Shown here: positions 321-15,414 of the stretch, one piece after another
How positions within the stretch are numbered: position 1 is the stretch's first letter
Layout of the letters: each line of letters begins with the position of its first letter
Origin: a virus
DNA: 33,263 nucleotides
Strand: one strand, 5' to 3'
Virus record (IMG/VR): IMGVR_UViG_3300044846_005924
Location: 1 to 33,263 of that record
Notes under the pieces: generated by a model
Told to the model about the DNA's origin: nothing
Databases searched by the model: none
Seen by the model: the letters and a program-made list of their open reading frames with translations, nothing else
Program-made: the position numbers and the translations under genes

Positions 321-629
321 TTATCCTAAGTATTTTTCGATTAGTCCATCAGCATCATCTGGACCAAGCTTTCCTTTTTCTACTAATTTAACTAATAGTG
401 CGGCGATTACTAATTTTTCTGGCATATCCTCTTCAGACATTTCAAGTTCTCCACTATCTGCTGCATCTGCAAGATCAGAATAAGCATCTTCTGCTGCTTC
501 TTCAACATCTTCTTCAGAACCAACGAGCTCAACTAGTTCATCTAATAATGATTCGTCTAATTCAAATGGAGTTTCCATTTCCTCCATCTCATTTAATTTA
601 TATTCTCTAAAAGACATGACTCTTTTCAT
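321..629 (-). CDS. Acidic leader-bearing protein, probable head/core component
   Basis: A 102-residue strongly acidic protein, rich in Glu, Asp, Leu and Ala, probably helical. Its N-terminus MKRVMSFREYKLNE ends in L-N-E, the form of a T4 prohead-protease cleavage site, and resembles leaders at 4748, 9013, 13092 and 13480. Met5 is a possible alternative start that would leave a 10-residue leader. An ATAAATAA motif ends 17 nt upstream and a strong terminator follows, so it looks like a single-gene late unit. The acidic helical nature recalls small prohead core proteins of T4 (gp67/gp68 class), but I see no specific sequence match. Function inferred only from leader and composition. Confidence 0.7.
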   Translation of the reverse strand: MKRVMSFREYKLNEMEEMETPFELDESLLDELVELVGSEEDVEEAAEDAYSDLADAADSGELEMSEEDMPEKLVIAALLVKLVEKGKLGPDDADGLIEKYLG

Positions 630-646
630 GAATTGCGATTTTTTAT

Positions 647-653
647 TATTTAT
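647..653 (-). promoter_or_regulatory. ATAAATA late-promoter-like motif
   Basis: The minus strand reads AAATAAATAATAAAAAA ending 17 nt before the ATG at 629. It overlaps the stop codon region of the primase gene (stop at 654-656), so a late unit starts at the end of a replication gene. Confidence 0.65.
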
Positions 654-1787
654 TTACACATATAGTAAATCTAATGGAGATTCAGAAAAGTATTGTAGAA
701 CAAATTTATTGAATGAATCAAAAGTAAGAGATTTATCATGTTTTATCATGAATAGGAATAGATCGTTAACGTCTTTGATGAGTCGAACACTTCTATAATC
801 TTCATTATACTGTTTTCGAAGATCTGCCATTACTTTATTCCATAAGAATACTCGATAACCTTTTTTAATTAGATCAATAGATTGAGTTTTACCAGCAAGG
901 TCACTATCAAATAGGATTAAGGTATTTGATTTACTTAGTAGGTTCTCTAATAGAAGTTTACTTTTAGAAATACCAGTAGTTGCAATTGAATTGTTTAGAA
1001 ACATTGCATCAATTTGCCCTTCAGTTACTAAGATAGGTTTTGAGAAATCAACATTCAATACATTAAAATAATTGTTAATTGAATCAATATCAGTTATAAT
1101 ATCATCTTCAACATTTCGAACAAGCCCATTCTTTTTTAATTCTGAATAGTTTTTAATCAAGTATTTTGGCCCAGCAATATCTTCACCTATTCGACGTATT
1201 GCAAATCCTAGAATCTTTCCAGTTCGCTGATCTAAATTAAAAAGATATACTTTATCTTCTCTTGAATCAAAGTAACTGCACCTTTGAAATGCAGGAAGAG
1301 TGTCAAGTGCACGATTTATTATGAATAGCCCAAGTTCAGTATCTGGATCAATTTCACTGCATGGAGTTAATGAAAATCGACGAACTACCTCTTCTATTTT
1401 TAAGAGATGATCGCTTGCATTTTTATTAATTAGGAGTTCAATTAAAGAGCCTCTCTTCTTTTTAGAAGTTTGCGGAGACCAGTTGACCTCAGTCTTAACT
1501 TCAGGTACGCCTAGTGAATATTTAAGTGCAAACTTAGAGATAAACTTAGGAAGGTCAGATTTTACTCCACAACCATCATTATAACACTTATAGAATCCTC
1601 TATCTGGATATAAGTTACCTCTCTTTTTTCTAGAGTCTGATTTAGAATCTCCACAATATGGACAAGCAAAATTTATCTTATCACCAGATTCGTATACTTC
1701 CTGCTTAAATCGATCTTCTGGAAATCTCTTCTTTAAGACATCCTTTATGAACTGGTGTATGTTATATCCGGCCACCAAATTAATCAT
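654..1787 (-). CDS. DNA primase, T4 gp61-like (zinc finger plus TOPRIM)
   Basis: A 377-residue DnaG-type primase, expected to make RNA primers for the lagging strand with a replicative helicase. A CHC2-like zinc-binding region is at residues 42-73 (C42, C45, C68, C73). A TOPRIM domain follows around 250-300, with the acidic set E256 (VTEGQID), D294 and D296 (LFDSD) that binds metal. T4 gp61 is somewhat shorter (about 340). The start ATG lies inside the end of the polymerase gene: the polymerase stop TAA overlaps it by 8 bp, so translation is probably coupled. No ATAAATAA motif precedes it, consistent with early or middle expression. Confidence 0.88.
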   Translation of the reverse strand: MINLVAGYNIHQFIKDVLKKRFPEDRFKQEVYESGDKINFACPYCGDSKSDSRKKRGNLYPDRGFYKCYNDGCGVKSDLPKFISKFALKYSLGVPEVKTEVNWSPQTSKKKRGSLIELLINKNASDHLLKIEEVVRRFSLTPCSEIDPDTELGLFIINRALDTLPAFQRCSYFDSREDKVYLFNLDQRTGKILGFAIRRIGEDIAGPKYLIKNYSELKKNGLVRNVEDDIITDIDSINNYFNVLNVDFSKPILVTEGQIDAMFLNNSIATTGISKSKLLLENLLSKSNTLILFDSDLAGKTQSIDLIKKGYRVFLWNKVMADLRKQYNEDYRSVRLIKDVNDLFLFMIKHDKSLTFDSFNKFVLQYFSESPLDLLYV

Positions 1788-3216
1788 TGTCTTCTTCCTC
1801 TAATACAAGAGCAGGATTAGCTTTCTCCTTCTTTTTTGTCATTCTTTTCAAGTATTTATCGAGTTCTGGTTTAGGCACGATAGTTGTATTTAAACCATAT
1901 TTTGTAATAACTCCTAAATATTCTTGGAAGTCTTCTTCTGGTATATCAGCATCTGCATTTCCTATTACTTTCCAGAATTTTTCTGGAACTTCTACATATT
2001 GTAGGGTCTCCTGATCGACTACGTACAGTGGAAAGATCTGAGCATCAGTAAGTATTTTCTTACTTTTTACTGTGACCAGTTCAACTGCTCTTTTTAAGTT
2101 TGAATCAAGTGAACTAATCTTCATTGCAGTAAGCAAACGATTTACTGGTTCAATGATTAGTGAAAAAAACTGAGCATCAATATCCATTAGTAAAGCTATT
2201 TCATCTGGATAAGTTCCAGGAGAATATGCAAATACGTCGTGACCTCCTTCATTAGCAGTAGGATTACAATAATAAAATTTTATTTTATCACCTTCTCTAA
2301 GCTTTGGGTATTTTTCAACAAGGCCAGTGGTAATTAGTGTATGATTATAGATCGCAGCTGCTCTAGGAAATATTGAGATTCCCTTTTTAAGTTCAAGTCT
2401 AGTTTCATTTGCAACATACTTATTATAAACTCTAATTCTAAAGTTAAATGTAAGCTCATCTGGATGAAGGGAAAGAGCTTCATTTTTAAGAGCAGTTAAT
2501 CGTGGAATAATATCTTTTTCTAGATCAAGTCTCTTACCACGATCCATAATAAAAGAGGTAAGCTCAGTAAGTTTATTTCTAGCCCAGATAGGATATGAAC
2601 CCTTAACTGGCTCTAAACCTTTTATTATTAAGTATCTCTTTTCTTGCGGTTCTAATTCGTAATTTGGATTTGGCTCATATGCTACACGAATAGCATAGTT
2701 TTTCTTTTTAAGCCAAATACCAGTTTCAGAAAGATTTTCAAGCTTAAATTTAAGTCGGTTTTTTGTATTGAATACTCTTCCATATTTCTCAAAACACATA
2801 TCAAAATAACTTGATAGACGGTAACGATCAATACTAATACAGATATTTAATGCTTCATCTTTAGAAAAATCAGCACCGATTATTGAATCAAGAGCAGAGT
2901 CAAACTGCACATAGATTGAGTCAGTATCAGTATAGATAGCGGCTTCATCTTCAATTTTATTGATTGTGTATTGATCAATTCCAAGCAATTTATGTAGTTC
3001 AGTATCAAGATGCCACTTTTCTAAAAAATAATGATTTACTGCTTTAATCGAAAACTTGATCAGATCTTGTCCCTGTAGAGTAATAGACTGTGCAATATCT
3101 GGGTTATAGAAATAGAACCACTTATTTCCGAATGCACCGTAAATTGAGTTAATTAGGATCTTTATCGCATTTTGCTTAAGATCAAGTTTTTTAATATTTT
3201 TTGCTTTATCTTCCAT
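1780..3216 (-). CDS. 43: Family B DNA polymerase, C-terminal half only (split gp43)
   Basis: A 478-residue protein that begins just before the fingers. Motif B (ILINSIYGAFGNKW) is at residues 19-33, motif C (YTDTDSIYV, D97 and D99) at 95-103, and a KKNY motif at 171-174, followed by palm and thumb. The 3'-5' exonuclease domain and motif A, which supplies another catalytic Asp, are absent. The frame closes with TAA three codons before the ATG and only 118 bp separate it from a divergent gene, so the N-terminal half must be elsewhere. Split gene 43 is known in some T4-like Aeromonas phages and in Rhodothermus phage RM378. The C-terminus (ALVLEEEDND) shows no obvious clamp-binding motif. Overlaps the primase start by 8 bp. 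Confidence 0.9.
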   Translation of the reverse strand: MEDKAKNIKKLDLKQNAIKILINSIYGAFGNKWFYFYNPDIAQSITLQGQDLIKFSIKAVNHYFLEKWHLDTELHKLLGIDQYTINKIEDEAAIYTDTDSIYVQFDSALDSIIGADFSKDEALNICISIDRYRLSSYFDMCFEKYGRVFNTKNRLKFKLENLSETGIWLKKKNYAIRVAYEPNPNYELEPQEKRYLIIKGLEPVKGSYPIWARNKLTELTSFIMDRGKRLDLEKDIIPRLTALKNEALSLHPDELTFNFRIRVYNKYVANETRLELKKGISIFPRAAAIYNHTLITTGLVEKYPKLREGDKIKFYYCNPTANEGGHDVFAYSPGTYPDEIALLMDIDAQFFSLIIEPVNRLLTAMKISSLDSNLKRAVELVTVKSKKILTDAQIFPLYVVDQETLQYVEVPEKFWKVIGNADADIPEEDFQEYLGVITKYGLNTTIVPKPELDKYLKRMTKKKEKANPALVLEEEDND

Positions 3217-3310
3217 ATAATTTTATACTTGGCTGAGACGATCTAGTTTCAGACATGACTATAATACTAAATATCTAATCAACATTAAATACTAGTTTGA
3301 CCACACTGAA

Positions 3311-3317
3311 ATAAATA
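3311..3317 (+). promoter_or_regulatory. ATAAATA late-promoter-like motif
   Basis: The sequence AAATAAATAACAAAAAG ends 17 nt before the ATG at 3335, in the 118-bp divergent gap between the polymerase half and this plus-strand unit. Confidence 0.6.
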
Positions 3318-3334
3318 ACAAAAAGAAGTTTGGT

Positions 3335-3961
3335 ATGGATGACCGCGATTACGATGGAACAGTAGACCGAACTTCAGAACTAATAACAGTTCTTCCATTT
3401 ATGGCAGAATTTCCTTTTGGAGAATATGACATATTGATGGTTGAAAGAGGTGAAGACTTTATAAAACTTGGAGTTTCACCAATATTAGTGAAGGAGTTTG
3501 GGGACACTGGAAAAATACAAAGCCTTAACTTCTACTATATTGAAGAAGGATCAGACATCTCAATCTCACTATATAGGGGAGATGTCGAATGGATAGCTGA
3601 AGAAGCGATCAATATAAAAAAAGTAGATGCTCTCTGTAAAATACTGGACACTTCTCTATCCAGTGAAGATCTCATTTTAAAAACTAAAGCAATTAAGACT
3701 GGCAGAAAATTTTCAAAACTTTTGAATTGTGATGCGGTGACTGGAATTGACTTTAATGAATTACTATCAGAATTTTTAATTATTTACGATACTCATCTTA
3801 ATTCAAAGATAAAATTGAGTTTGCAAAAATTAAGCGAAGCTACACTAAAATCCACTGAATTCTCAGAAAAACAATTTAAAGCAGTGAAAGCATTCCTTAA
3901 TTTTCAAATTCATTATATAAAAATCCTGTTAGGGATTGTGATTGCAGCTAAAATATATTAA
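3335..3961 (+). CDS. Hypothetical protein
   Basis: A 208-residue protein I do not recognise. The N-terminal half is mixed and acidic (starting MDDRDYDGT, with likely beta strands such as SLNFYYIEE and SISLYRGDVEW). The C-terminal half is helical and Lys-rich, ending in a hydrophobic stretch (IHYIKILLGIVIAAKIY), possibly a membrane anchor or buried helix. It is the first gene of a plus-strand unit with an ATAAATAA motif 17 nt upstream. Its stop is separated from the phoH start by 3 nt, so the two are co-transcribed and probably translationally coupled. Late expression and position suggest a virion or assembly role, which is unproven. Confidence 0.65.
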   Translation: MDDRDYDGTVDRTSELITVLPFMAEFPFGEYDILMVERGEDFIKLGVSPILVKEFGDTGKIQSLNFYYIEEGSDISISLYRGDVEWIAEEAINIKKVDALCKILDTSLSSEDLILKTKAIKTGRKFSKLLNCDAVTGIDFNELLSEFLIIYDTHLNSKIKLSLQKLSEATLKSTEFSEKQFKAVKAFLNFQIHYIKILLGIVIAAKIY

Positions 3962-3964
3962 TCT

Positions 3965-4726
3965 ATGGCACAAAAGAGAAAATTAACTAAAGATGAATTA
4001 GAGGATGTTGATAATTGGCAAAAAGAGCGTGAAGCTCTACTTGCAGCAAAGGCATTTACGAATAAGATAGAGATAAAATGCAAGTCGAAGGCCCAAAAGG
4101 ATGCCTTAACTGCAATGGAAAACCATGATATTTCAATTATAACTGGACCTCCAGGAACAGGTAAGACTTATCTATCTTGTGCAAGAGCACTGAAGTACAT
4201 AAAGGATGATCCTGGAACATACAAGAAGATCATCTTAATAAAATCTGTTAATGTACCAAAGGATGAGGAGATAGGGTATCTAAAAGGGACAATGGAGGAG
4301 AAGATGGAGATGTACATGTATCCATTTATCTCAAACTTTCAAAAGGTAATTGGTAAGCAGGCAACGGATGCATTGAAAGCTAGCGGAAATATTGAAATTT
4401 TACCTATTAAGTTTGCATTAGGTGTTACTCTAGACAATGCAATCATCTTAATTGATGAAGCTCAACAAATAGCAAAAGATCACTTACATACATTATTAAC
4501 TCGAATTGGAACCGACTCTAAGATGATATTTTTAGGAGATATTAAGCAAAAATCTGTAAATAAGGGACAAAAAAGTGCTCTTGAAATCTTAATTGAACAT
4601 TTCGTAGATATAGAGGAGATTGGAGTAGCACAATTATCAAAAGAGGATATTGTACGTCACCCAATTATTATAAAGCTTGAAGAAGTCTTTGAAAAGATCG
4701 AAAATTCAGAAAAATTAAATAAATAA
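3965..4726 (+). CDS. phoH: PhoH-like P-loop ATPase
   Basis: A 253-residue member of the PhoH family, common in marine and T4-like phages. Walker A is GPPGTGKT (61-68), followed by the typical LIKSVNVPKDEEIGYLKG segment (91-108), Walker B LIDEAQQ (162-168) and the LGDIKQK sensor region. The family resembles the ATPase part of superfamily 1 helicases and is linked to RNA or nucleotide metabolism; its phage role is unsettled. The first 40 residues are charged and probably helical. It follows the hypothetical gene by 3 nt, and its last codons hold the promoter-like motif of the next gene. Confidence 0.92.
   Translation: MAQKRKLTKDELEDVDNWQKEREALLAAKAFTNKIEIKCKSKAQKDALTAMENHDISIITGPPGTGKTYLSCARALKYIKDDPGTYKKIILIKSVNVPKDEEIGYLKGTMEEKMEMYMYPFISNFQKVIGKQATDALKASGNIEILPIKFALGVTLDNAIILIDEAQQIAKDHLHTLLTRIGTDSKMIFLGDIKQKSVNKGQKSALEILIEHFVDIEEIGVAQLSKEDIVRHPIIIKLEEVFEKIENSEKLNK
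4719..4725 (+). promoter_or_regulatory. ATAAATA late-promoter-like motif
   Basis: ATAAATAAC overlaps the phoH stop codon and ends 22 nt before the ATG at 4748. Confidence 0.5.
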
Positions 4727-4747
4727 CTGAAAATAATTTCATAATCT

Positions 4748-5149
4748 ATGGATCGTGCATTATCATTTAATAAATGGAAAAGGGTAAATGAACAGGGTGA
4801 GGCCGCACTTCAACATCGACATAGAGATACAATGGTTTACCTGATACCTAGAGCATATCGAATTAAGGTAGAACTATCTCCAGAATATACCGGTACTGAA
4901 AGTCAATCTAGGAGTGAAGGAATGTTGACTCGTAAATTTGATCAGTTTAAACAAGATAAATTAACATTCACTAAAAGTGATGGAGTTAATATAGTAGGAG
5001 ATACTGCTTACTTTAAATTAAAAACGGTATTTACTGACGATTTTATTAAACTTCTAATAGAGACGTTGTTTGGTGAAGCGATTGGTGGAGAAATTAATAT
5101 TGAAGAAACGTCAATCGAAGAATTTTCTAATGGAAGATGGCATTGGTAA
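4748..5149 (+). CDS. Leader-bearing hypothetical head-associated protein
   Basis: A 133-residue protein whose start MDRALSFNKWKRVNE ends in V-N-E and closely resembles the leader of the protein at 321-629 (SFREYKLNE). Cleavage there by the prohead protease would leave about 118 residues. The rest is mixed alpha/beta with an IPRAYRIKVELSP strand region and an acidic C-terminus ending GRWHW. I recognise no domain. It has its own ATAAATAA motif and is followed by a hairpin terminator (5171-5194), so it ends this plus-strand unit. A packaged internal or core protein is the best guess, based on the leader alone. Confidence 0.65.
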   Translation: MDRALSFNKWKRVNEQGEAALQHRHRDTMVYLIPRAYRIKVELSPEYTGTESQSRSEGMLTRKFDQFKQDKLTFTKSDGVNIVGDTAYFKLKTVFTDDFIKLLIETLFGEAIGGEINIEETSIEEFSNGRWHW

Positions 5150-5170
5150 TATCTGTGCATCCTAAATATA

Positions 5171-5197
5171 AAAGCGACTCATTCGGGTCGCTTTTTT
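5171..5197. terminator. Bidirectional terminator between convergent genes
   Basis: A perfect 8-bp stem (AAAGCGAC 5171-5178, GTCGCTTT 5187-5194) with an 8-nt loop is followed by T residues on the plus strand. On the minus strand it includes the last codons and stop of uvsW (stop at 5179-5181), so it can end transcription from both sides. Confidence 0.8.
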
Positions 5198-6756
5198 GTT
5201 ATATCTACTGTATTTTCTGACATTTCAAATTTTTGTTCTCGATAAATCTCTTTTCTTATCTTAGCATGGCGAATTGAATAACCATCAAGCTGATCAACTA
5301 GGTCCCAGACTAAAACTTTTGTCTTTTCGGCTAGTTTTCGCATTCCTCGACCTATTGCTTGTCGTAGAGTGACTTCAGCTTTAATTGATTCTGCTAAGAT
5401 AATATGGTGTAGGTTCTTAGAGTCAATTCCAGTAGCAAAAGTACCAAATGAAGCAACTAGAATCACATCATCCTGCGATTCTAATATATCTTTAAATTTA
5501 TCACGCTCTTTTGAGTCAACTTCGCCATCTATATAGAAGGTATTTGGGTTCCATTCCAATAATTTTGATTGAATCATCTTTCCATAACCGTTCTTGACAT
5601 CTGAAAAGAGAATGAGTGAGTTTTTACCGAATTTTTTAACTAGATCATTAATAAAATCTAGTCTCTCTTTGCTATCAAAAATAATTCCCTTTTCAATGGC
5701 TAACATGTCTCGGCCAAAGTCCTTGGGATTGTTATACATTTCCTTTCCAGTCTCTTTAAGGTGCCAGTATTTTTGAATCATTGGATCAGACTCATCGTAT
5801 TTTAGTTTGACAATTTTAATCTTAATATTTGGTGAATATCCATTGTCAATTAGGTGTTTGGCAGAAAGAACCATCACAAGAGGTCCGACATTTTCCTGAA
5901 CCTTAAAAAAATCTGAAAACTGTTCGTCTAATTTAACTGTTCCTGACAAACCAAGGCGATATTCCCAATTTACACAGCATAAGAGGATCTCTCGAATAGA
6001 ATTACCTTTAGATTTGTGTACTTCATCAACTTGAACAACTGCAAAAGATCTAAATAACTCTACTGGAAGGTTGATTAAGCTTTGATAAGTTGAAATTACT
6101 ACTTCAGATTCATCAAACCTCTCTTGTGTAAATTTATCCTTTCCTCCAATCGTACATACTTTCCATTCTTTTCCTGGCTGAGCATACATTTCAAATTTCT
6201 CAGCAGTTTGACCAACTAGTGAAATATTTGGAACAATAATTAGAGATTTTCGATCCTTTGTGATTTTTCCTCCATCTCTTAAGAATGAGTTATAGATAAA
6301 AAAGATTAGCGTCTTACCAGCAGAGGTTGCAAGTTCTTGTGTACAAAACTTATATTTGATTGCTCTAAATGCACCTTCAACTTGATAGTCTCTAGGGATG
6401 ATTGGAAGACCTCGTTCATCGACTATTCCAGCCAATAGGTTTTCTACGTATTTAAGATATTTAGCTCGATCTAATTGAGTATTTACAAATTCTTCTGATC
6501 CTTCAATCTCACAATCGTAGCCATACTTATCGGCAAAATTATAAATCTCTTTCCATAGACCAATTGCGATATTACCGTCCTTTGTGATAAACGAATCAAG
6601 ACCATCCCATACACCACGATCTACTAGAACGTTAAATGCAGCTTTCTTTGATTTACGTTTAAAAAACTTAAATAAACTTGACTTTTCGCTATTGAGAGTA
6701 ACATCTACAAGTTTAATGAATTTCTTGTCATTTGATACTTTAAATTTTAACAACAT
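5179..6756 (-). CDS. uvsW: UvsW-type superfamily 2 helicase
   Basis: A 525-residue DEAH-like helicase of the T4 UvsW type, which unwinds branched DNA and R-loops and helps switch origin-dependent to recombination-dependent replication. Motif Q-like PRDYQ (121-125), Walker A ATSAGKT (143-149), motif Ia IVPNISL, Walker B DEVH (244-247), motif III SGT (271-273) and motif VI QAIGRGMRK near 470-480 are all present. The N-terminal 110 residues form a substrate-binding region, as in T4 UvsW. It follows the UvsY-like gene by 11 nt, recalling the T4 uvsW-uvsY neighbourhood. Its 3' end forms part of the bidirectional terminator. Confidence 0.93.
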   Translation of the reverse strand: MLLKFKVSNDKKFIKLVDVTLNSEKSSLFKFFKRKSKKAAFNVLVDRGVWDGLDSFITKDGNIAIGLWKEIYNFADKYGYDCEIEGSEEFVNTQLDRAKYLKYVENLLAGIVDERGLPIIPRDYQVEGAFRAIKYKFCTQELATSAGKTLIFFIYNSFLRDGGKITKDRKSLIIVPNISLVGQTAEKFEMYAQPGKEWKVCTIGGKDKFTQERFDESEVVISTYQSLINLPVELFRSFAVVQVDEVHKSKGNSIREILLCCVNWEYRLGLSGTVKLDEQFSDFFKVQENVGPLVMVLSAKHLIDNGYSPNIKIKIVKLKYDESDPMIQKYWHLKETGKEMYNNPKDFGRDMLAIEKGIIFDSKERLDFINDLVKKFGKNSLILFSDVKNGYGKMIQSKLLEWNPNTFYIDGEVDSKERDKFKDILESQDDVILVASFGTFATGIDSKNLHHIILAESIKAEVTLRQAIGRGMRKLAEKTKVLVWDLVDQLDGYSIRHAKIRKEIYREQKFEMSENTVDITKKRPE

Positions 6757-6767
6757 TGTCCATTTTT

Positions 6768-7202
6768 TTATAGACCTAACGTTTTTTCTATATCAAGTCT
6801 AGTCTTGATACCAAATATAATATTATCAATTGTTTTGATTGATTCATTAAAAAAGGCGATTTGATTCTCGATTATTTCTAATGATTCTTTAGTACTAGAT
6901 GTTCTACCCTCTATTACTATATTTTTTTCATTTGCTTGATATCGTATTTGAAGATTCCTAGAAATATTTTCCATTTCAACTGAACGTTCATCTCTATATT
7001 TTTTTCTAAGAAGAGTGACATGTTCTAATAGAGAGTGATTATCTTCTAATAATCTTTGACGAAGAGAGAGCATATTTACTTGAGCTTCCTTAAGAGTCTT
7101 AAGATTTGATAGTTTCTCAATATTTTCATAAATCTCTTTAGAAACTTCTGATCTACGATCTTGAAACTTTTTAGCAATCTTTAATTTCGTCTCTTCGTTC
7201 AT
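6768..7202 (-). CDS. Coiled-coil protein, candidate UvsY-like recombination mediator
   Basis: A 144-residue, almost entirely helical, charged protein. The T4 UvsY mediator (137 residues) loads UvsX recombinase on single-stranded DNA and lies near uvsW in T4. The C-terminal part here (QANEKN, then ENQIAFFNESIKTIDNIIFG) recalls the C-terminal helix pattern of cyanophage UvsY as I remember it. Length, helicity and position just upstream of uvsW also fit. The N-terminal half does not align by eye, so a generic coiled-coil protein remains possible. No ATAAATAA motif precedes it, consistent with a replication/recombination gene. Confidence 0.5.
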   Translation of the reverse strand: MNEETKLKIAKKFQDRRSEVSKEIYENIEKLSNLKTLKEAQVNMLSLRQRLLEDNHSLLEHVTLLRKKYRDERSVEMENISRNLQIRYQANEKNIVIEGRTSSTKESLEIIENQIAFFNESIKTIDNIIFGIKTRLDIEKTLGL

Positions 7203-7245
7203 AATAAAAGTATTTTATCCTTTATACTTAAAAAAGAATAATAGT

Positions 7246-7737
7246 TTAACCTGCAAAGTCAATGAACTTATAGTACGTTGAACCCATTTTAAAGTGCTCG
7301 TCGTTTTCCATATCATCTTTACTAATTGATGAAACGATTTCATTTCCTGCTGGAGATGATGTACCATCACTATAGTAATAGTCAACGTATTCTTCTCCTT
7401 TTTTACCAAGAATTAAGTTCTTAATCTTATATTTTTCAAATATTTGTGGTATCTTATCTTTAAACTCAGCATCATCGTCAAGTACCATAAAGATTGAAGG
7501 ATAGTCAACCATTTGACCATCTCGGCTAATTGCCGCAGTTTGTTTGATATAGTCGTCTTGAAAAAGATCTGAGTCAAGTGCAGAAGAATAGCTTTCACTG
7601 TTCTTAAAAGTAATTATTATGAATGGAATCTTAGTTTGAATTGCATCCCTAATTTGAGTCCAAGTATGACTAGTGTCTTCAGTCGTTTTGTTTATGTCCT
7701 GTTGATAGTCTTCGTATAGTTTAACGTATTTAGTCAT
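7246..7737 (-). CDS. Hypothetical protein with possible packaging leader
   Basis: A 163-residue acidic protein I do not recognise. The N-terminus MTKYVKLYEDYQ carries L-Y-E at residues 7-9, which could be a short prohead-protease site, though it fits the leader family less well than the others. The body has likely alternating strands and helices (IPFIIITFKNSES, YPSIFMVLDDDAEF, KIKNLILGKKGEEY) suggesting a small alpha/beta fold. An ATAAATAA motif ends 22 nt upstream, marking it as late, while the uvsY-like and uvsW genes downstream could be read through from it. Confidence 0.65.
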   Translation of the reverse strand: MTKYVKLYEDYQQDINKTTEDTSHTWTQIRDAIQTKIPFIIITFKNSESYSSALDSDLFQDDYIKQTAAISRDGQMVDYPSIFMVLDDDAEFKDKIPQIFEKYKIKNLILGKKGEEYVDYYYSDGTSSPAGNEIVSSISKDDMENDEHFKMGSTYYKFIDFAG

Positions 7738-7780: not shown

Positions 7781-8386
7781 ATGAATGAAATAACCAAGAT
7801 TTTAGTCTTTGATTTTGATGAGACACTATTTAGAATGCCAGGATATACTGATAGATTTTCAGTAGAGAGGCTCAAGCCGGAACTAAGTTTCCCAACACCA
7901 TATTCTTTTTATGATCACCCGACCTCGATGGATCCTGAAATACATAATATTCAGATCATTGGTCCTGTGTATGAGGATTGGAAAGAAGCATCACGGGATC
8001 CAACTGCAAGAACTATCCTAATCACTCATAGAACTGAAGAGCTTCGTCCTTGTGCTGAACATTTACTTAAAATACATGGAATAGAATTTGATGAATTGTA
8101 TTTTCTAGGTAGAGTTTCTGAAAAGATTACTATTCTTGAAAAAGAATTAAGTTACTTACCTAATGTAAAAGAGATATCAGTATATGAGGATTCTCTTGAA
8201 CAATTAAGAAAGTATCAAGATTTTTATTATGAATATACATCAGAAATCTATAAGACTCGATCGATTGACGCGACTGACTTTTTTGAAAACTTTATTTTAC
8301 TAAATATGCAATTTGTTGATAAGTCAAAGGTTATGAGCTTAAGTGATTTTAGTGCAGGACCATCTAGAAAAATAGAATTACGATGA
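7781..8386 (+). CDS. HAD-superfamily phosphatase-like protein
   Basis: A 201-residue HAD-fold protein. Motif I is DFDETLF (D11 nucleophile, D13 acid), motif II includes T82 in ILITHRTE, and motif IV is YEDS (E136, D137). The insert between motifs I and II and the DFDETL form recall the Swiss Army Knife RNA-repair-type HAD family, in which the domain sits beside nucleic-acid repair enzymes. Substrate is unknown. Its stop TGA overlaps the ATG of the next gene, a P-loop kinase, so the two are coupled. A phosphatase-kinase pair suggests nucleotide or polynucleotide end processing by analogy with T4 Pnkp. That analogy is inference. Confidence 0.75.
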   Translation: MNEITKILVFDFDETLFRMPGYTDRFSVERLKPELSFPTPYSFYDHPTSMDPEIHNIQIIGPVYEDWKEASRDPTARTILITHRTEELRPCAEHLLKIHGIEFDELYFLGRVSEKITILEKELSYLPNVKEISVYEDSLEQLRKYQDFYYEYTSEIYKTRSIDATDFFENFILLNMQFVDKSKVMSLSDFSAGPSRKIELR

Positions 8387-8979
8387 TAATAATGATAGAG
8401 GGTCACCGCCATAGTGGCAAGACATATTTAATTGAAAAATTCTTTGAACAGAATAAGAATCCTGATGTTCACTATTATAAATTTCAATTTGCAAAATATA
8501 TTGATGAACTTGGGATGAGAGATCAGGAAACTGGTCCAGGTGTTCACTATTTTAGTATTGCAAATGTCTTAACTATTCTTGAACTCAATAATACTCTATT
8601 AAAAGATAAGATCCTAGTATTTGACCGATGTATCTTTTCAGCATATGTATGGTCGATCTATAGAGAACGAATGGGTCAATTTAGACTAGTTGAAGAATTT
8701 AAAAAAATTCTCACAAGTGATCTCTTCAATGATGTTAAGCTATTATATGTTGAAAGAGACGAAGATATTAAGATCACTAAAAGAGAAAAGGACTATTTTG
8801 GTAATTTTGAAAGTGCTGATCATGAAAAAGAACTCTTTGAAAGAATATTCTCCGAATTCAATCCTCAAATCACTGATATAAAAAGAAATAATGAATTCGG
8901 TCGCATGATTAATGAGTTCGATAATGAGAGTTCTATCCAATTTAATAGAATGCTAAACGATCTAATAAATAGAGGTTGA
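8383..8979 (+). CDS. P-loop nucleoside/nucleotide kinase, thymidylate kinase-like
   Basis: A 198-residue P-loop protein with Walker A GHRHSGKT (7-14), a VFDRC motif (79-83, D81-R82) matching the DR(Y) motif of thymidylate kinase-like enzymes, and a LLYVERDED strand before a lid-like KITKREKDYFG segment. It probably phosphorylates a nucleotide or a nucleic-acid 5' end; the substrate cannot be read from sequence. The second Met (residue 4) is an alternative start. It overlaps the HAD gene by 4 bp. Two ATAAATA motifs follow: one inside its last codons (8965-8971) and one after it (8988-8994). Confidence 0.75.
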   Translation: MIIMIEGHRHSGKTYLIEKFFEQNKNPDVHYYKFQFAKYIDELGMRDQETGPGVHYFSIANVLTILELNNTLLKDKILVFDRCIFSAYVWSIYRERMGQFRLVEEFKKILTSDLFNDVKLLYVERDEDIKITKREKDYFGNFESADHEKELFERIFSEFNPQITDIKRNNEFGRMINEFDNESSIQFNRMLNDLINRG

Positions 8980-8987
8980 TTACTATA

Positions 8988-8994
8988 ATAAATA
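8988..8994 (+). promoter_or_regulatory. ATAAATA late-promoter-like motif
   Basis: TAATAAATAATAAAAAAAT ends 18 nt before the ATG at 9013. A second ATAAATA occurs at 8965-8971 within the preceding gene. Confidence 0.65.
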
Positions 8995-9012
8995 ATAAAA
9001 AAATAATTTAGG

Positions 9013-9573
9013 ATGGCAACCAAATATACGTTAGGCTATTTACAATATATTAAAGAAGCAGAAGAGGCAGAACTTGCCGCACCTTTAAAAGGATATACTG
9101 CTGACCAAGTAATTACTAGAATCGAGGAATTAATGGAAGTTCTATCAGATAAAGTAAGATTTGGTATACCTTCAGACAATTTAGGTAGAACAATAACTTA
9201 TAGAGATGCGAATGGAGTAATTGCTAGAATTAGGGATATTGTTCACTATTATGATAGTAAGAAAGAACAGGTTAGATTTTATTGCTGGTCAATAAGTTAT
9301 AGCGGAACGTGGAAAGCATCTAAAAATCTAAGACAAAAAATAGAGAATGATGGAGGATTTGGCGAATCAGATCTTAATATAAACATTAAAAAAGTTATCG
9401 ATTATTTTATGGAGAACCCAGAAGATTCAGATAACATTGCAAGTATCTCTATTGGTATTGATTCAGAAAGCATTAGAAAAGCAATGTCTGCACCAAAACC
9501 TGAAGCAAAACCAGCACCCGCTCCAGAAAAACCTCAAGTTACTGAGCAAAAACCAACAGAACCAGAAATCTAA
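9013..9573 (+). CDS. Leader-bearing protein with Pro/Ala-rich tail, probable internal head protein
   Basis: A 186-residue protein starting MATKYTLGYLQYIKEAEEAE. The Y-I-K-E|A junction resembles the T4 internal protein III leader, which ends F-I-A-E|A and is cut by the prohead protease. The central part (about residues 27-155) is mixed alpha/beta without a domain I know. The last 25 residues are a low-complexity Pro/Ala/Glu/Lys tail (KPEAKPAPAPEKPQ), likely flexible. It is the first gene after an ATAAATAA motif and precedes the ligase-like/NMNAT-like fusion gene by 11 nt, so both should be made late and together. Confidence 0.65.
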   Translation: MATKYTLGYLQYIKEAEEAELAAPLKGYTADQVITRIEELMEVLSDKVRFGIPSDNLGRTITYRDANGVIARIRDIVHYYDSKKEQVRFYCWSISYSGTWKASKNLRQKIENDGGFGESDLNINIKKVIDYFMENPEDSDNIASISIGIDSESIRKAMSAPKPEAKPAPAPEKPQVTEQKPTEPEI

Positions 9574-9584
9574 AAGATAAATTC

Positions 9585-11459
9585 ATGGCCGGAATAAACA
9601 ACTTAAAGGAAATCTATGAAAAGAAAGGCGAGTCTTTCTTAAGTGGATTACTAAACCAGTATGTAATAATCAATGAAAAGGTTGATGGTGCATTCTTTGG
9701 ACTAAAAAAGACACAAGACGATAAGTTTAAGTATTTTAAGAAGTCTGGAGAGATCACATATGTTGATCAAGTCTTAATGAAGTATTATAATCCTGCAATT
9801 CAGCATTTTCAAAACTTATCTGATGATAAGAGACAGCGTATTCCTGCTAACTTCTTTTTTGGGTTTGAGTATTTTACAAAGAGTGATATTAAATCTAGTA
9901 GAAAGGCTGATCTTCCTAAAAATAACTTGGTTCTTTCATATATTCATAGATTAGATGAAACTGGTAAAATTGTTGAGACTCTTCAATCAAAGGAACAATT
10001 GACTCGATGGGCAGAATACTTAGACGTTGATGCGCCACCTATTATTTTTGAAGGTCGACTTGATGATGAGCAGAAAAGTAGGATCCTAGAGTTTGTATAT
10101 ACTGAAAAGAAGGATCTTGAAGAACAATTTAAGACTACTTCATTTACTAAGTATATTATATCTGTGCTTTGCCCAGATGAAAAGTCTGAATTTTCAGATA
10201 GAGAACTTGAAACTATTGTTTTTAGGTTTTATGGAGACGATTCAGAAAACGAAGCGTTCTTAGCAAAATTAGTGGATCCAATATTTCAACAAAGAGCACA
10301 AGAAGTTCAACCTAAAACTTCAAACTCACAAGACTATATTTGGTTAATTGTAATCGACTTGATGAATCACTTTGAAATGTACGACATTGATAAGCTTCGT
10401 CAAATGATTTCAGACTCAGAGTTGTATGAACAAAAGTATATTGACTTAATTAATCAGATATTTAAAGACTTTTTACAGGATTATTCTGAAAAATATGAAG
10501 GTCTTGAACTAGAGATACCTGACTACTTAAAGAGACCTGAATTTGAGCTTGATGTAAATTTAGTGGGAGACCCAGAAGTGGTGAACCTAATTAAAAAGAA
10601 TTCAACTAATTTAGAGATCTATAAAGTTCTACTAAACTTCTTTAGAAAAGTAAGAAAGAAATCAAGTGTGGGATTTTTTACACCTGAAATGATTTCACAG
10701 CTTAACTTAATTGTTCAAAAGATCAAGAATATTATAATGGGTGATGCAGTATATGAAGGACTGTTTCCAAGCTTTAATGAGTTTATTGGAGCACCAAATG
10801 ATTATATGACGTTAAGCGAAGTTGAGCATGCAAAACAACTTAAAGACTCACCAGAAGTACAAAATGTAAATATCTTAATCGGCGGTTTTCAACCTATAAC
10901 AATGGGACATATTAAGGCAGCAAAAGCCTTAAAGGAGAAGAATGGAAATAAGATTGTCTTTATTGCAATAAAAGGATCAACTCCTACTAAAAAATCTCCT
11001 TTTTCTCTTGAAACGACTAAGCGACTTTTAAATAAAGTACAACAAGAATATCCTGAATTAATTGTAAGTGCCATGATCGTCCCTAACGGGCAAATCACAG
11101 ATATTATAAAAGAACTTAGGCCTCAGTATGAACCGATCCTATGGGGAACAACAGATCGTCGAGTAAAGGACTATGCTCTACAGTTTGATTATATTAAAAA
11201 GAGAGATCTTCCACTCAGAATATCAAAAGACTTTAAATTAGTAGAACTTCCAAGCTTTGTAAAATCAGAAGATATGATAGACTTGATTAAAGATTCAAAT
11301 TATGAGAAGTTTAAGAGTGAGACCCCGACATCAGTATCAGCTGAATTTTTTAATCTACAAAAGGAAATTGGAAAACATATTAATGTGAACGAAGCTAATC
11401 AAGATACTCGCTTTATGGAGCCTGGAGTAAACGATGATTCAACAGAAGATATCGTTTAA
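9585..11459 (+). CDS. Ligase-like nucleotidyltransferase fused to NMNAT-like cytidylyltransferase domain
   Basis: A 624-residue two-domain protein. The N-terminal part has the ligase/capping-enzyme motif I EKVDG (K32 is the expected AMP- or GMP-accepting lysine), a possible motif III FGFEYF (92-97) and lysines at 183 and 189 in a possible motif V. These spacings fit an RNA-ligase-like domain. A helical linker (about 200-425) follows. The C-terminal part has GGFQPITMGH (433-442), the nucleotide-binding signature of nicotinamide-nucleotide adenylyltransferases and cytidylyltransferases. The usual final ISxTxxR appears only as a weak TSVSAEFF. A V-N-E|A near the C-terminus could be a protease site. 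Possible roles are RNA or NAD repair; the exact reaction is unknown. Confidence 0.72.
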   Translation: MAGINNLKEIYEKKGESFLSGLLNQYVIINEKVDGAFFGLKKTQDDKFKYFKKSGEITYVDQVLMKYYNPAIQHFQNLSDDKRQRIPANFFFGFEYFTKSDIKSSRKADLPKNNLVLSYIHRLDETGKIVETLQSKEQLTRWAEYLDVDAPPIIFEGRLDDEQKSRILEFVYTEKKDLEEQFKTTSFTKYIISVLCPDEKSEFSDRELETIVFRFYGDDSENEAFLAKLVDPIFQQRAQEVQPKTSNSQDYIWLIVIDLMNHFEMYDIDKLRQMISDSELYEQKYIDLINQIFKDFLQDYSEKYEGLELEIPDYLKRPEFELDVNLVGDPEVVNLIKKNSTNLEIYKVLLNFFRKVRKKSSVGFFTPEMISQLNLIVQKIKNIIMGDAVYEGLFPSFNEFIGAPNDYMTLSEVEHAKQLKDSPEVQNVNILIGGFQPITMGHIKAAKALKEKNGNKIVFIAIKGSTPTKKSPFSLETTKRLLNKVQQEYPELIVSAMIVPNGQITDIIKELRPQYEPILWGTTDRRVKDYALQFDYIKKRDLPLRISKDFKLVELPSFVKSEDMIDLIKDSNYEKFKSETPTSVSAEFFNLQKEIGKHINVNEANQDTRFMEPGVNDDSTEDIV

Positions 11460-11505
11460 AACTTTAATTGATTCTTGGATATAATATACAAAACTTTCCA
11501 AAAAT

Positions 11506-13065
11506 ATGAGGTTTAAAGAATTAGAAGAGTCAGATATTAAATATTTTACTGAAGTATATTACAATAAAGCTATTTCATGGGATAATCGATTACGTATACT
11601 ATCTGAAAAGTTTGAATGTTCAACTAGAACATTAGAAAACTGGGCATCTAAACTTAAATTAACTGAGACTGCTCAAGAAGAATCACCGCAATATCAAAGT
11701 GCACAAGCTAGAGAATATAATAAAAAATCAAAACGTTTTATTATTTCTTGGGCTCAAAATAATACTGGCGTACATACTTCATTTATTGAAAATATGAAAG
11801 CATATGCTGATTTTATTAATGCAGATATTCATATAATTGCAGGTCGATATAAAAATCCTACCTCTGTCTGGACAAATAGTCAAGAAGAGAGTGAATTTTG
11901 GGATCCAATAGTAGTTCCTTACTTGGATGCAAATCGTCATGATATACATAAGTATCTTTCAATCATGTCAGATGTTAAGATTCAGCCAACCGCTGTTAAT
12001 CCTATGACTGGTTTAGAGGGAATGAGTGGAATTAATTCATGTGTAGTGGGTTCTCCTAAAATGCAAATGGAAATGATTCCAGTACTCGAAGGAAACGCAC
12101 CAAAGATGATGATTACAACTGGAGCTTGCACAAATAAGAATTATACTGATTCTAAAGCTGGTAAAAAGGGAGAATTTCATCATACTTTAGGTTTTGTTAT
12201 TGTTGAAATTAAGAATGATGAAATATTCTTTATGAGACAGGTAACTGCAACTGATTCAGGAAGCTTTACTGATCTTTTTTATAATACTACTGATGGTGAG
12301 GTGACTCGCATTTCTGAAATATCAGCAATTATCTTAGGCGATCTACACTATGGCAAACATGATCAAGATGTACTAAATAAGACTCTTGATTTTATGAATA
12401 TTCTTCATCCTGAACACGTGATCCTACATGATGTTTTTGATGGGACATCTATTAGTCACCACGAAGAAAAGGATCCATTTATACAATATCAAAAGGAATT
12501 AGACGGAACAAATTCACTAAAGAAGGAAGTTGATGACTTACTTGTAGGTCTTTCTGATTTTCAAGACTATAATACTGTAATTGTTCGAAGTAATCATGAT
12601 GATTTCGTAGACAGATGGTTAAAAAATACTGATTGGCGAAAAACAGTCACTCCTAAAAACTCTCTAGAATACATGCTCTATTCTGCAGCTATCCTAGGCG
12701 GAGAGGCACCAAATGGTGTTATTCCTTGGGTAATAAACAAGGCATATCCTCACTTTATTACACTAGGCAGAAGTGATAGTTATATTGTTAATGGCTGGGA
12801 ACTAGGTCAGCATGGAGATATAGGGGCTAGCGGTAGTCGAGGATCCTTACAACAGTTTAGAAAACTAAATACTAAAATAGTAGTTGGACACTATCATTCA
12901 CCTGGAAGAAAGGATGGAGCATTAGCAGTCGGCACAACTAGTAAATTAAGATGCGGATATAATATCGGACCGAGCTCATGGTTACATTCACATGTAATTA
13001 TTCATAAAGATTCAAAAGCACAACACATTAACTTTATAAAAGGCGGATATACTACATTGAAATAA
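11506..13065 (+). CDS. HTH domain plus calcineurin-like metallophosphoesterase
   Basis: A 519-residue protein. Residues about 25-53 resemble a helix-turn-helix (RLRILSEKF, then TRTLENWASKL). The C-terminal half is a calcineurin-like phosphoesterase: GDLH (D279, H281), HDVFDG (D309, D312), SNHDD (N363-H364-D365), GQHGD (H436) and GHYH (H462, H464), giving a full dinuclear metal site. The domain order recalls the phage T5 A1 protein, a first-step-transfer factor with nuclease-type signature, but that match is from memory. A nuclease or phosphodiesterase on nucleic acid is plausible. No ATAAATAA motif precedes it; a TATAAT-like sequence occurs at 11480-11485. Its stop overlaps the next promoter-like motif. 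Confidence 0.78.
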   Translation: MRFKELEESDIKYFTEVYYNKAISWDNRLRILSEKFECSTRTLENWASKLKLTETAQEESPQYQSAQAREYNKKSKRFIISWAQNNTGVHTSFIENMKAYADFINADIHIIAGRYKNPTSVWTNSQEESEFWDPIVVPYLDANRHDIHKYLSIMSDVKIQPTAVNPMTGLEGMSGINSCVVGSPKMQMEMIPVLEGNAPKMMITTGACTNKNYTDSKAGKKGEFHHTLGFVIVEIKNDEIFFMRQVTATDSGSFTDLFYNTTDGEVTRISEISAIILGDLHYGKHDQDVLNKTLDFMNILHPEHVILHDVFDGTSISHHEEKDPFIQYQKELDGTNSLKKEVDDLLVGLSDFQDYNTVIVRSNHDDFVDRWLKNTDWRKTVTPKNSLEYMLYSAAILGGEAPNGVIPWVINKAYPHFITLGRSDSYIVNGWELGQHGDIGASGSRGSLQQFRKLNTKIVVGHYHSPGRKDGALAVGTTSKLRCGYNIGPSSWLHSHVIIHKDSKAQHINFIKGGYTTLK

Positions 13066-13068
13066 ATA
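13062..13068 (+). promoter_or_regulatory. ATAAATA late-promoter-like motif
   Basis: AAATAAATAACTTAGAA overlaps the preceding stop codon and ends 23 nt before the ATG at 13092 of the small zinc-ribbon gene. Confidence 0.5.
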
Positions 13069-13091
13069 ACTTAGAAATAAGTACTATTTTT

Positions 13092-13259
13092 ATGAAGTAT
13101 ATTTTAGGACATGTTAATTATATACGTGAAGCCGTAACTGATACTCGTGTCATATGCGATAAGTGTGGATGGAATTGGGCAATCGTTGATGGAGGAGATG
13201 ACTTATATATGTGTCATAAATGTGGGAATGATAATACTCCATCCAATACTTTAAAATAA
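13092..13259 (+). CDS. 55-residue zinc-ribbon protein with packaging leader
   Basis: A short reading frame of 55 codons starting MKYILGHVNYIREAVTD. The Y-I-R-E|A junction matches the leader family and the T4 internal protein leader form. Cleavage would free a 42-residue domain with CDKCGW (C22, C25) and CHKCGN (C41, C44), a four-cysteine zinc ribbon separated by a short WAIVDGGDD hairpin. Such small ribbons often bind nucleic acid or protein. It has its own ATAAATAA motif 23 nt upstream and lies between the phosphoesterase and another small gene. A packaged, possibly injected, zinc-binding peptide is the inference. Confidence 0.75.
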   Translation: MKYILGHVNYIREAVTDTRVICDKCGWNWAIVDGGDDLYMCHKCGNDNTPSNTLK

Positions 13260-13268
13260 TTAAGCAAC

Positions 13269-13460
13269 ATGGCCAAGAAAAATGATAGTCAACAAAATTT
13301 TGAAAATTACCGTAAAGGTAAAGCAAAATTAGAAAACGCAGTTTTACAACACCCAGAAGAGAGTAAAGGAGGAAAATCAGTATATGATTTTATGAAAGGT
13401 GAAGTTAAACGTAATATGTGGGTCATTCCGTATGAGCAGTTTAAAAAGAGAGATAAATAA
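13269..13460 (+). CDS. Small basic hypothetical protein
   Basis: A 63-residue, Lys-rich protein beginning MAKKNDSQQNFENYRKGKAK, with a YDFMKGE motif in the middle and ending QFKKRDK. No recognised domain and no leader of the type seen in its neighbours. It starts 9 nt after the zinc-ribbon stop, so it is likely co-transcribed with it. Its last codons contain the promoter-like motif of the next gene. Charge and size would suit a DNA- or RNA-binding or virion accessory protein, but nothing specific supports that. Confidence 0.6.
   Translation: MAKKNDSQQNFENYRKGKAKLENAVLQHPEESKGGKSVYDFMKGEVKRNMWVIPYEQFKKRDK
13453..13459 (+). promoter_or_regulatory. ATAAATA late-promoter-like motif
   Basis: GAGATAAATAATTAAAAT overlaps the stop of the 63-residue protein and ends 20 nt before the ATG at 13480. 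Confidence 0.6.
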
Positions 13461-13479
13461 TTAAAATCTCAAAGATCAT

Positions 13480-15414
13480 ATGAGTTTTGAAGCATATTTA
13501 AGGAATTGGCTTAGAATCACCGAATCAATCGTAAATGAGACTGACGAAAAAGAAGATAATAAATCATCTGAGCTTGATGAACTTCTTAATATTATTGAGT
13601 CAGGAATAGGCGGAGAAACATCGGACAGGACAGCTAGAACTACTTCATTTGAGTCGATTGAACAGGTACTACAAAAAGTAGACATACTTACTCTAGAAAA
13701 AATAAAAGACAATCCAGATCTACAAAGAGTATTACTTGCAATGGTTGCTCCTGGAAAAGTAGAGTGGATGGGTGAATACTTAACTAAATCTAAAAAGAGT
13801 TTAAGCGCTCTATCTTCAGACAAGAAGAAGACTGATCCTTCTCTTAATTTTGAAGGATATAAAAGATTTATATTACGCGAGGCTGACGTTAAGAGCAGAA
13901 TCTATAAGATGCACTTGATCTTTAAATATGCATCCGACTTGCCTGAATTAGATAAGGAGACAAATTTACTATTGGCATTAAAAAAATTAGATGTTTCTCT
14001 AAATACTGAAACTGATCAACCTACTATTAAGATCCATAAGATTGGAAGCATTGATAATACAGTCGAGACAAATGAGTTTGAGGTAATAGATTCAAATGGA
14101 GAATCTAGAGTAATGAAAAAGGAAGAACTCGCAAATCTTCTTGAAAAGAATCCTGATATTGCAGAAAAGGCTAAGGCTATCGCTAATGATTCCTATAAGA
14201 AAAAATTAAATAAGCTCGTACAGAGAACAGAAGATACTATTAGAAAAGAGGTAGCTGGATCAATGCGAGAAACTGAACAAGTAATCTCAAACTTACCAAA
14301 CGATGAGAAGACTATGGAAAAACTACAAGTTGATTGGAAACCTCTAATCGATGCGTTAGGTTATTCTAAATTCTTTAGTGGTCCAATCAAGGCAAAGGAG
14401 AAGGAGATAACTAAGAATGAACGTCCAAGCTTAAGAAAAAAGAATAGGATTAAGGAAAAACTAATGAGTGCATTAAGTTCAGCACTTCTTCCACCTATGG
14501 CAAATGGCGAGATCTCTGCTCCAGGTGGAGATTATTATAAATTATTTAAGAAATTAGAAGGGCAAAATACTGCATGGCTAGAAGCAGCAATTAAAGAAGT
14601 GCTTGTAGATTCAGCTAGAATTGCTCAATTTAATAATTCAGCCCGAACTGCAGAAAGCGCGCTTGAAGAGAATCAATTAGCCTATTTACAGATCAGTAGT
14701 GCATGGATAATTAAATATATCGAGAGTGAAGTTGATGGAGAATTATCTAAACGAGATACTGATAATGCGATTGCTAAGATTAAGTCAATTACTCAACAGA
14801 AGGAGAAAGAGATTAAAAACTACTATTTGTCAAAGGATTTTAATATGAAGAACTTTAAGGGTATTCAGTTAAAACCAGATCTGCGCCTTCCTCTTTATCA
14901 AAGGGTTAGATTAGCGGTTAGTGAGGCAGATCGAATCGCTGAAAGTCCACTAAAGAACCTTCTTAAAGGATTAGGTCAAATAGCCGTTGGATTGTTTTCA
15001 ACTATTCCTGATCGAGGCGACATGGCACTAGCTAAAAAGAATGCTGATCAAAATCGAGCAGTCTTTAATGGCCTATATAGTATTATTAAGGGCGGAGTAT
15101 ATGGAGTAAGTAAGCAAGGAGGTCGAGACTTTGAAAAAGGAGTGGAAAAAGCAACTAATAAGATGAGATTAGATGCAGTTGGCTTGACTCCATATGAAAA
15201 AGGAGAAGGTCCTAAATTTTATAAGTCAGCTGAAAAGAAAACAAATGAAGAAGCTGCAGCAGTTTCACCAGGAGCTACTTTCCAAACACCTGATACTCTA
15301 CCATCGGATAATATGGATACATTTGCACTAGCTGGTCCAGGTAAAAAGACCAAAAAGAAGAAAATTATAAAAAAGGTTTCTACATTTAACGATTTTCTGA
15401 AAAGTAAGGACTAA
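13480..15414 (+). CDS. Large leader-bearing helical protein, probable virion/internal protein
   Basis: A 644-residue, highly charged, mostly helical protein. The N-terminus MSFEAYLRNWLRITESIVNE contains I-T-E|S, matching the leader family. Long charged helices follow, with a possible hydrophobic helix region around SPLKNLLKGLGQIAVGLFST. The C-terminus has a strongly basic run (GKKTKKKKIIKK) and ends with TFNDFLKSKD. I recognise no catalytic domain. It is preceded by an ATAAATAA motif and followed by the baseplate module. It could be a large internal head or pilot-type protein, or a tail-associated protein; the leader favours head packaging. Function is unassigned. Confidence 0.7.
   Translation: MSFEAYLRNWLRITESIVNETDEKEDNKSSELDELLNIIESGIGGETSDRTARTTSFESIEQVLQKVDILTLEKIKDNPDLQRVLLAMVAPGKVEWMGEYLTKSKKSLSALSSDKKKTDPSLNFEGYKRFILREADVKSRIYKMHLIFKYASDLPELDKETNLLLALKKLDVSLNTETDQPTIKIHKIGSIDNTVETNEFEVIDSNGESRVMKKEELANLLEKNPDIAEKAKAIANDSYKKKLNKLVQRTEDTIRKEVAGSMRETEQVISNLPNDEKTMEKLQVDWKPLIDALGYSKFFSGPIKAKEKEITKNERPSLRKKNRIKEKLMSALSSALLPPMANGEISAPGGDYYKLFKKLEGQNTAWLEAAIKEVLVDSARIAQFNNSARTAESALEENQLAYLQISSAWIIKYIESEVDGELSKRDTDNAIAKIKSITQQKEKEIKNYYLSKDFNMKNFKGIQLKPDLRLPLYQRVRLAVSEADRIAESPLKNLLKGLGQIAVGLFSTIPDRGDMALAKKNADQNRAVFNGLYSIIKGGVYGVSKQGGRDFEKGVEKATNKMRLDAVGLTPYEKGEGPKFYKSAEKKTNEEAAAVSPGATFQTPDTLPSDNMDTFALAGPGKKTKKKKIIKKVSTFNDFLKSKD

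What the first reader, a model, noticed from the sequence alone, without database searches (positions are those of the whole stretch)
321..15414. Family of N-terminal leaders resembling T4 capsid-targeting sequences
Five unrelated proteins (starts at 629 minus, 4748, 9013, 13092, 13480) open with a short leader of the form hydrophobic-[S/G]-aromatic-x-x-[YW]-...-[I/L/V]-x-E: SFREYKLNE, SFNKWKRVNE, LGYLQYIKE|A, LGHVNYIRE|A and YLRNWLRITE|S. A sixth (start 7737 minus) ends L-Y-E. T4 internal protein III uses a leader ending F-I-A-E|A, cut by gp21. All six genes carry the late motif. This suggests a set of internal head proteins packaged and then cleaved, possibly injected with DNA.
Basis: partly seen in the sequence, partly recalled or inferred. 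Interest (0 to 1): 0.78.

Follow-up and report, generated by a model that had tools for sequence, protein, structure and literature searches.

The report
Head-packaging tags on many phage proteins
Many otherwise unrelated proteins of this large T4-like phage and its relatives start with the same short tag, very like the one phage T4 uses to load proteins into its head and then cut off, so the set of proteins these uncultured phages probably carry inside the virion can be read from their first ~15 residues.

Summary
All six named proteins have the stated starts, leaders and an upstream ATAAATA late-type motif. Two leaders (9013, 13092) have the T4 capsid-targeting spacing Ar-xx-Ar-[LIV]-x-E (Ar aromatic or His; T4 IPII/IPIII MKTYQEFIAE|A). 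In 321, 4748 and 13480 the [LIV]-x-E sits one or more residues further on. 7737 has the short form KLYE.

Across eight relatives (109-270 kb) the strict motif opens 97 proteins against about 7 expected from shuffled N-termini; C-termini show no excess. Three genomes were held out. In T4 the same pattern finds IPII and IPIII. Fifty leader proteins, one per body cluster, align with a single invariant column, the Glu.

The window encodes the expected partner: a gp21-type (S77) protease fused to a helical region of eleven 14-residue repeats, most reading Y-xx-Y-[LIV]-x-E. The major capsid protein conserves W-x-P-[ILV]-L-E and a second [LIVM]-x-E. Recognised cargo domains (lysozyme, Nudix, nucleotidase) are enzymes.

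Best reading: cleavable capsid-targeting propeptides docking cargo onto the scaffold core. Packaging, cleavage and injection are inferred. New variant of a known kind.

The parts
588..629 (-). leader MKRVMSFREYKLNE of the 102-aa acidic protein 321-629 (class A', Glu site one residue further on)
   Evidence: ORF; three of four orthologs keep a leader with aromatic pair and [LIV]-x-E, G003 does not; ortholog lies near the portal gene in relatives, net charge about -22
4748..4792 (+). leader MDRALSFNKWKRVNE of the 133-aa protein 4748-5149 (class B, Glu site two residues further on)
   Evidence: ORF; no homolog found; same class in many relatives
7711..7737 (-). leader MTKYVKLYE of the 163-aa protein 7246-7737 (short L-Y-E form)
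   Evidence: KLYE/RLYE/KLFE in most orthologs, replaced by class A KTFQHYLNE in L114
9013..9057 (+). leader MATKYTLGYLQYIKE of the 186-aa protein 9013-9573 (class A, T4 spacing)
   Evidence: Glu15 invariant in 9 orthologs; leader outside the folded domain, pLDDT mostly below 50; 10.8 bits against the scaffold-repeat matrix
13092..13130 (+). leader MKYILGHVNYIRE of the 55-aa zinc-ribbon-like protein 13092-13259 (class A with His first)
   Evidence: orthologs end YLFE/YLYE/YLFE; 8.9 bits against the scaffold-repeat matrix
13480..13524 (+). leader MSFEAYLRNWLRITE of the 644-aa protein 13480-15414 (class B)
   Evidence: in close orthologs SFEAYLRxWL stays while the [IV]-x-E slides downstream by several residues
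24051..26024 (+). prohead protease (S77, gp21-type) fused to a C-terminal scaffold region
   Evidence: PF03420 36.5 bits over cut-off 27; PHROG 207 head maturation protease 1.6e-34; hit to T4 gp21 5JBL E 0.0025
24927..25388 (+). eleven tandem 14-residue repeats, most matching [IV]-x-Y-x-x-Y-[LIV]-x-E: candidate core-docking units and protease sites
   Evidence: predicted helical at low confidence
26051..27730 (+). major capsid protein (gp23 family); conserved W-x-P-[ILV]-L-E (26105-26122) and [LIVM]-x-E near residue 54 (26204-26212) in its N-terminal region
   Evidence: PF07068 7.7e-35; N-terminal conservation in relatives; T4 gp23 NKWKPLLE|GEG
29120..29845 (+). class III nucleotidyl cyclase with a leader-like start SYPIWE|S (tentative member)
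   Evidence: PF00211 8.9e-22; orthologs MKHLLSYPIWES, MSNYINSYAIWEN

Best explanation
The leaders are N-terminal capsid-targeting propeptides working like those of T4 internal proteins. Late in infection the leader (aromatic pair plus nearby [LIV]-x-E) docks an otherwise unrelated protein onto the scaffold core of the prohead. That core is built by the protease-scaffold fusion, whose 14-residue repeats carry the same Y-xx-Y-[LIV]-x-E pattern. When the protease is activated it cuts after Glu in the leaders, in the capsid-protein propeptide and in nearly every scaffold repeat, so the core falls apart, leader peptides are lost and the cargo stays in the head. Some or most cargo is then probably ejected with the DNA. 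Shown: the leaders, their N-terminal enrichment, late-motif association, conservation of the Glu, the protease, the repeats and the capsid-protein motifs. Inferred: docking, cleavage, packaging, ejection.
For: T4 IPIII mutagenesis: targeting at residues 4 and 7, processing at 8 and 10; gp21 cuts after L/I-x-E. Class A has that layout and finds IPII and IPIII in T4. Strong N-terminal enrichment in eight relatives, three held out, none at C-termini. Alignment of 50 leader proteins, one per body cluster: only the Glu is invariant. P3 is I/L/V by definition, but P2 Asn (49/113) and P1' Ser/Ala/Asn (60/113) were not imposed; capsid proteins of part of the family have INE|A or INE|S at their conserved site. 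Leader genes carry the late motif 66/120 versus 184/1036 for others, p 1.5e-17, not corrected for relatedness. Orthologs exchange leader classes: 9013 YLQYIKE to FREFEKINE, 7246 KLYE to FQHYLNE. Nearly the same leader on different bodies: MSNILNFKNWLNE and MSNILNFKNWLRVNE. Tail and portal genes examined lack it. Leader lies outside the folded domain in the 9013 model.
Against: No virion proteomics, so neither packaging nor cleavage is shown. About 45% of leader genes lack the upstream motif (some may be within operons). Class B patterns have a higher chance rate and include clear false hits such as a 400-aa family starting MAKSTNDAINAFNKFNDLLEK. 4748 has no homolog. The first aromatic position of 13092 is not conserved (H/Q). 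The repeat matrix scores only 9013 and 13092 well, not the displaced leaders, so shared protease specificity alone could explain part of the likeness.
Confidence: 0.83

Rival explanations
1. The leaders are only protease recognition tags: the proteins reach the head by other contacts of their bodies and the tag serves to mature or activate them.
For: The common invariant is the Glu; the scaffold-repeat matrix does not recognise displaced leaders; in T4 targeting and processing are separable.
Against: The aromatic pair at fixed spacing is kept although the protease needs only [LI]-x-E; in most close 13480 orthologs the aromatic half SFEAYLRxWL stays while the cleavage half moves.
Confidence: 0.12
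2. Some leader proteins, such as the acidic 102-aa 321-629 and the 644-aa 13480, are prohead core or scaffold parts (gp67/gp68-like) that are consumed, not cargo that is carried and injected. This would be true alongside the best explanation for part of the set.
For: 321-629 is small, very acidic and near the portal gene in relatives, as T4 gp67 is; 13480 has a conserved C-terminal F-x-[DK]-F-[LIM] as well.
Against: Most leader families are patchy, single-genome proteins, as expected of accessory cargo; some contain enzyme domains.
Confidence: 0.35
3. The leaders are chance or a general N-terminal sequence bias of these genomes.
For: Short motif; the class B pattern has a notable chance rate.
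Against: About nine- to seventeen-fold excess over shuffled N-termini of the same proteins, none at C-termini, no excess in phiKZ, pT24 or PAU.
Confidence: 0.02

Closest known systems
Phage T4 internal proteins IPI-IPIII and their capsid targeting sequence (Mullaney and Black 1996, as reviewed in PMC9026906; PMC3012670)
   Same: short N-terminal leader, aromatic pair three apart, [LIV]-x-E cleavage site, unrelated bodies, gp21-type protease in the same phage; IPI also has its cleavage site displaced (MKTFKEF...ITE|A)
   Different: 7-19 strict class A (15-36 with looser classes) candidate genes per relative genome instead of three IPs; displaced and short variants; recognised enzyme domains among the cargo
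T4 gp21 protease, gp22 scaffold and gp23 capsid protein
   Same: S77 protease domain, gp23-family capsid protein with N-terminal W-xx-[LIV]-x-E motif, scaffold with many [LIV]-x-E sites
   Different: protease and scaffold are one polypeptide here and the scaffold has tandem 14-residue CTS-like repeats; T4 gp22 shows no such match
phiKZ and SPN3US head proteins with propeptides (PMC5694885)
   Same: jumbo phages with cleavage after Glu of several head proteins
   Different: their propeptides are mostly over 100 residues; phiKZ shows no excess of this leader
P1 DarB capsid targeting (PMC9024508)
   Same: N-terminal signal that brings a protein into the head
   Different: no shared consensus among the Dar proteins was found in that study

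Membership tests
T4-type capsid targeting sequence | short N-terminal leader, 10-19 residues | tested here: met
   Glu at residue 13-15 in five of the six; residue 9 in 7737
T4-type capsid targeting sequence | aromatic residues three apart at the targeting positions | tested here: met
   Y/Y 9013, F/Y 321, F/W 4748, F/Y 13480; H/Y only in 13092; not before the Glu in short-form 7737
T4-type capsid targeting sequence | [LI]-x-E cleavage motif directly after the second aromatic | tested here: inconclusive
   exact in 9013 and 13092; displaced in 321, 4748, 13480, as it also is in T4 IPI
T4-type capsid targeting sequence | gp21-type protease in the same genome | tested here: met
   24051-26024, PF03420 over cut-off
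T4-type capsid targeting sequence | leader sufficient to bring a protein into the head | not testable with these tools
   needs a fusion experiment
T4-type capsid targeting sequence | leader removed in the mature virion; protein ejected with DNA | not testable with these tools
   needs virion proteomics and an ejection assay
Prohead protease S77 | match over the curated Pfam cut-off | tested here: met
   36.5 bits against 27
Prohead protease S77 | His and Ser of the T4 gp21 active-site blocks conserved | tested here: met
   H81-P82 and S136-S137-R138 invariant in 26 relatives, matching NHP and SSR of gp21 by eye; active-site assignment from general knowledge
phiKZ-type long propeptide | propeptide of about 100 residues or more | tested here: not met
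   leaders of 9-15 residues in the window

The most novel reading that the evidence does not exclude
The leader is a stand-alone copy of the scaffold's own repeat code. A protein is loaded because its first ~15 residues mimic one 14-residue unit of the protease-scaffold core, and the same code marks the capsid-protein propeptide. The protein content of the heads of a whole group of uncultured jumbo phages could then be predicted from N-termini.
Probability: 0.4. Interest if true: 0.75.

Novelty: new variant of a known kind. Interest (0 to 1): 0.6.

Why it matters
If right, the proteins that these uncultured jumbo phages carry into the cell can be listed from sequence alone: 15-36 candidates per relative genome (a few of them chance hits), most without any known family. 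Phage-injected proteins such as T4 IPI act against the first host defences, so this is a ready list of candidate anti-defence and takeover proteins. The tandem-repeat scaffold fused to the protease also offers a simple model of a self-dismantling core, relevant because no gp22-like scaffold had been confirmed in giant phages of the SPN3US kind (PMC5694885).

Tried and rejected
Near-identity DNA search of the phage collection gave no match, so relatives came from IMG/VR. A homolog search for 4748 found none, and 13092 has none in the phage collection at E 0.01. Fold searches with the 9013 model gave no Foldseek match at E 0.001 and no Z of 5 or more, so its function is open. Considered and dropped: 13480 as the portal, because the portal of relatives is a separate leaderless gene; a general C-terminal copy of the tag, because C-termini show no enrichment. 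The first scan with the scaffold-repeat matrix recognised only two of the window leaders, so the claim of repeat mimicry is kept as a separate, weaker claim. Patterns that caught non-leader proteins (e.g. the 400-aa MAKSTNDAINAFNKFNDLLEK family) were left out of the cargo list. No paper found here describes this leader set in T4-like jumbo phages of this group, but subscription journals are mostly not held.

Full report
What the window is. G000 is a 33,263-base IMG/VR virus fragment of a T4-like jumbo-phage group. Its capsid protein belongs to the gp23 family. The nearest named records are uncultured huge phages such as LR756500, Prevotella Lak phages and Tenacibaculum pT24, at 29-40% identity.

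The observation. All six proteins, starts and leaders are as described. All six have ATAAATA upstream. They are not homologous to each other outside the leader. Gene starts are from a simple open-frame caller, not from experiment.

More than chance. T4 mutagenesis puts targeting at IPIII residues 4 and 7 and processing at 8 and 10. Writing that as Ar-xx-Ar-[LIV]-x-E and searching the first 24 residues of every gene finds, in T4, IPII, IPIII, 61.1 and 61.4. In eight relatives it finds 97 proteins against about 7 in shuffled N-termini. Three of these genomes were fetched after the patterns were fixed. Huge phage LR756500 has 23 against 3.4, many reading MKYIxxYxxF[LI]xE. phiKZ, pT24 and PAU show no excess, although PAU has its own shared start MKTxSKLYE or similar in 13 proteins. 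The same pattern at C-termini gives only chance hits.

Variants. Classes A' and B have the Glu site one or two residues further on (321, 4748, 13480), and a short form is K[LT][FY]E (7737). Evidence that these are one thing: orthologs swap them. 9013 has YLQYIKE or similar in most relatives and FREFEKINE in L146; 7246 has KLYE in most and FQHYLNE in L114. In 13480 orthologs SFEAYLRxWL stays while the [IV]-x-E slides, although the distant L114 ortholog starts differently. T4 IPI has the same displaced layout. Aligning 50 leader proteins, one for each body cluster, leaves one invariant column, the Glu; these proteins were chosen by the pattern, so that column shows alignment at the tag and absence of any other shared residue, not independent proof of the Glu.

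The machinery. ORF 24051-26024 is an S77 protease with a distant match to the solved T4 gp21, fused to a region with eleven 14-residue repeats, ten of them with [LIV]-x-E. The repeats occur in nearly all relatives, and degenerate copies in LR756500. The region is predicted helical, at low confidence. The capsid protein keeps W-x-P-[ILV]-L-E, as T4 gp23 does (NKWKPLLE), and a further [LIVM]-x-E near residue 54, which in one branch reads INE|A or INE|S, the commonest leader ending.

Cargo. Of 50 leader proteins, few match known families: lysozyme and peptidoglycan-binding domains, a Nudix hydrolase, a deoxyribonucleotidase. Leader genes are enriched for the late-type motif (66/120 versus 184/1036), though relatedness of the genomes makes that p value too small. 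The tail and portal genes examined have no leader.

How it most likely works. Late synthesis, docking of the leader on the scaffold core through the aromatic pair, assembly of the shell, activation of the protease, cuts after Glu in leaders, capsid propeptide and scaffold repeats, loss of the small peptides, DNA packaging, and probable ejection of cargo. These steps follow what is established for T4; none was tested in this group.

Known or new. The kind is known: T-even internal proteins share only the targeting sequence (PMC3012670). New here are the scale, the interchangeable leader classes, and a protease-scaffold fusion whose repeats look like the leader. Whether the leader binds the core by mimicking a repeat is open: the matrix built from repeats alone gives a roughly ten-fold N-terminal excess over the rest of the proteins, but that could reflect shared protease specificity.

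Noticed in passing
window 29120-29845: Class III adenylate/guanylate cyclase domain (PF00211, 8.9e-22) just after the capsid genes, with a leader-like start; found in three relatives' loci. A possibly packaged nucleotidyl cyclase.
   Followed up: partly
window 28199-29110 and paralogs in G001/G002: A separate shared start MSFINWGxESPEQ opens several proteins per genome; no family match.
   Followed up: no
window 15379-15411 (C-terminus of 13480-15414): All 11 homologs end in F-x-[DK]-F-[LIM] or close (one reads FADFI), like the aromatic half of the leader without the Glu; could be a second, uncut docking site.
   Followed up: partly
T4 NC_000866 18966-19130 and 20112-20408: T4 proteins 61.1 (MKTFKEFIKED) and 61.4 have CTS-like starts and are annotated only as hypothetical.
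   Followed up: partly
Sphingomonas phage PAU NC_019521: 13 proteins, several in the head gene cluster, share a different leader MK[ST][LI]xxLYE, often followed by KLNE.
   Followed up: partly
Prochlorococcus phage P-SSM2 158143-159417: A cytidyltransferase begins MKSFSQFLTE, a class A leader on an enzyme in a cultured cyanophage.
   Followed up: no
window 9585-11459 and 22169-22930: A cytidylyltransferase with a weak RNA-ligase match (below the curated cut-off), and a NeuB-family protein.
   Followed up: no
window 11506-13065: Strong match to PHROG 1745 'DNA transfer protein' (1.8e-152), without a leader.
   Followed up: no
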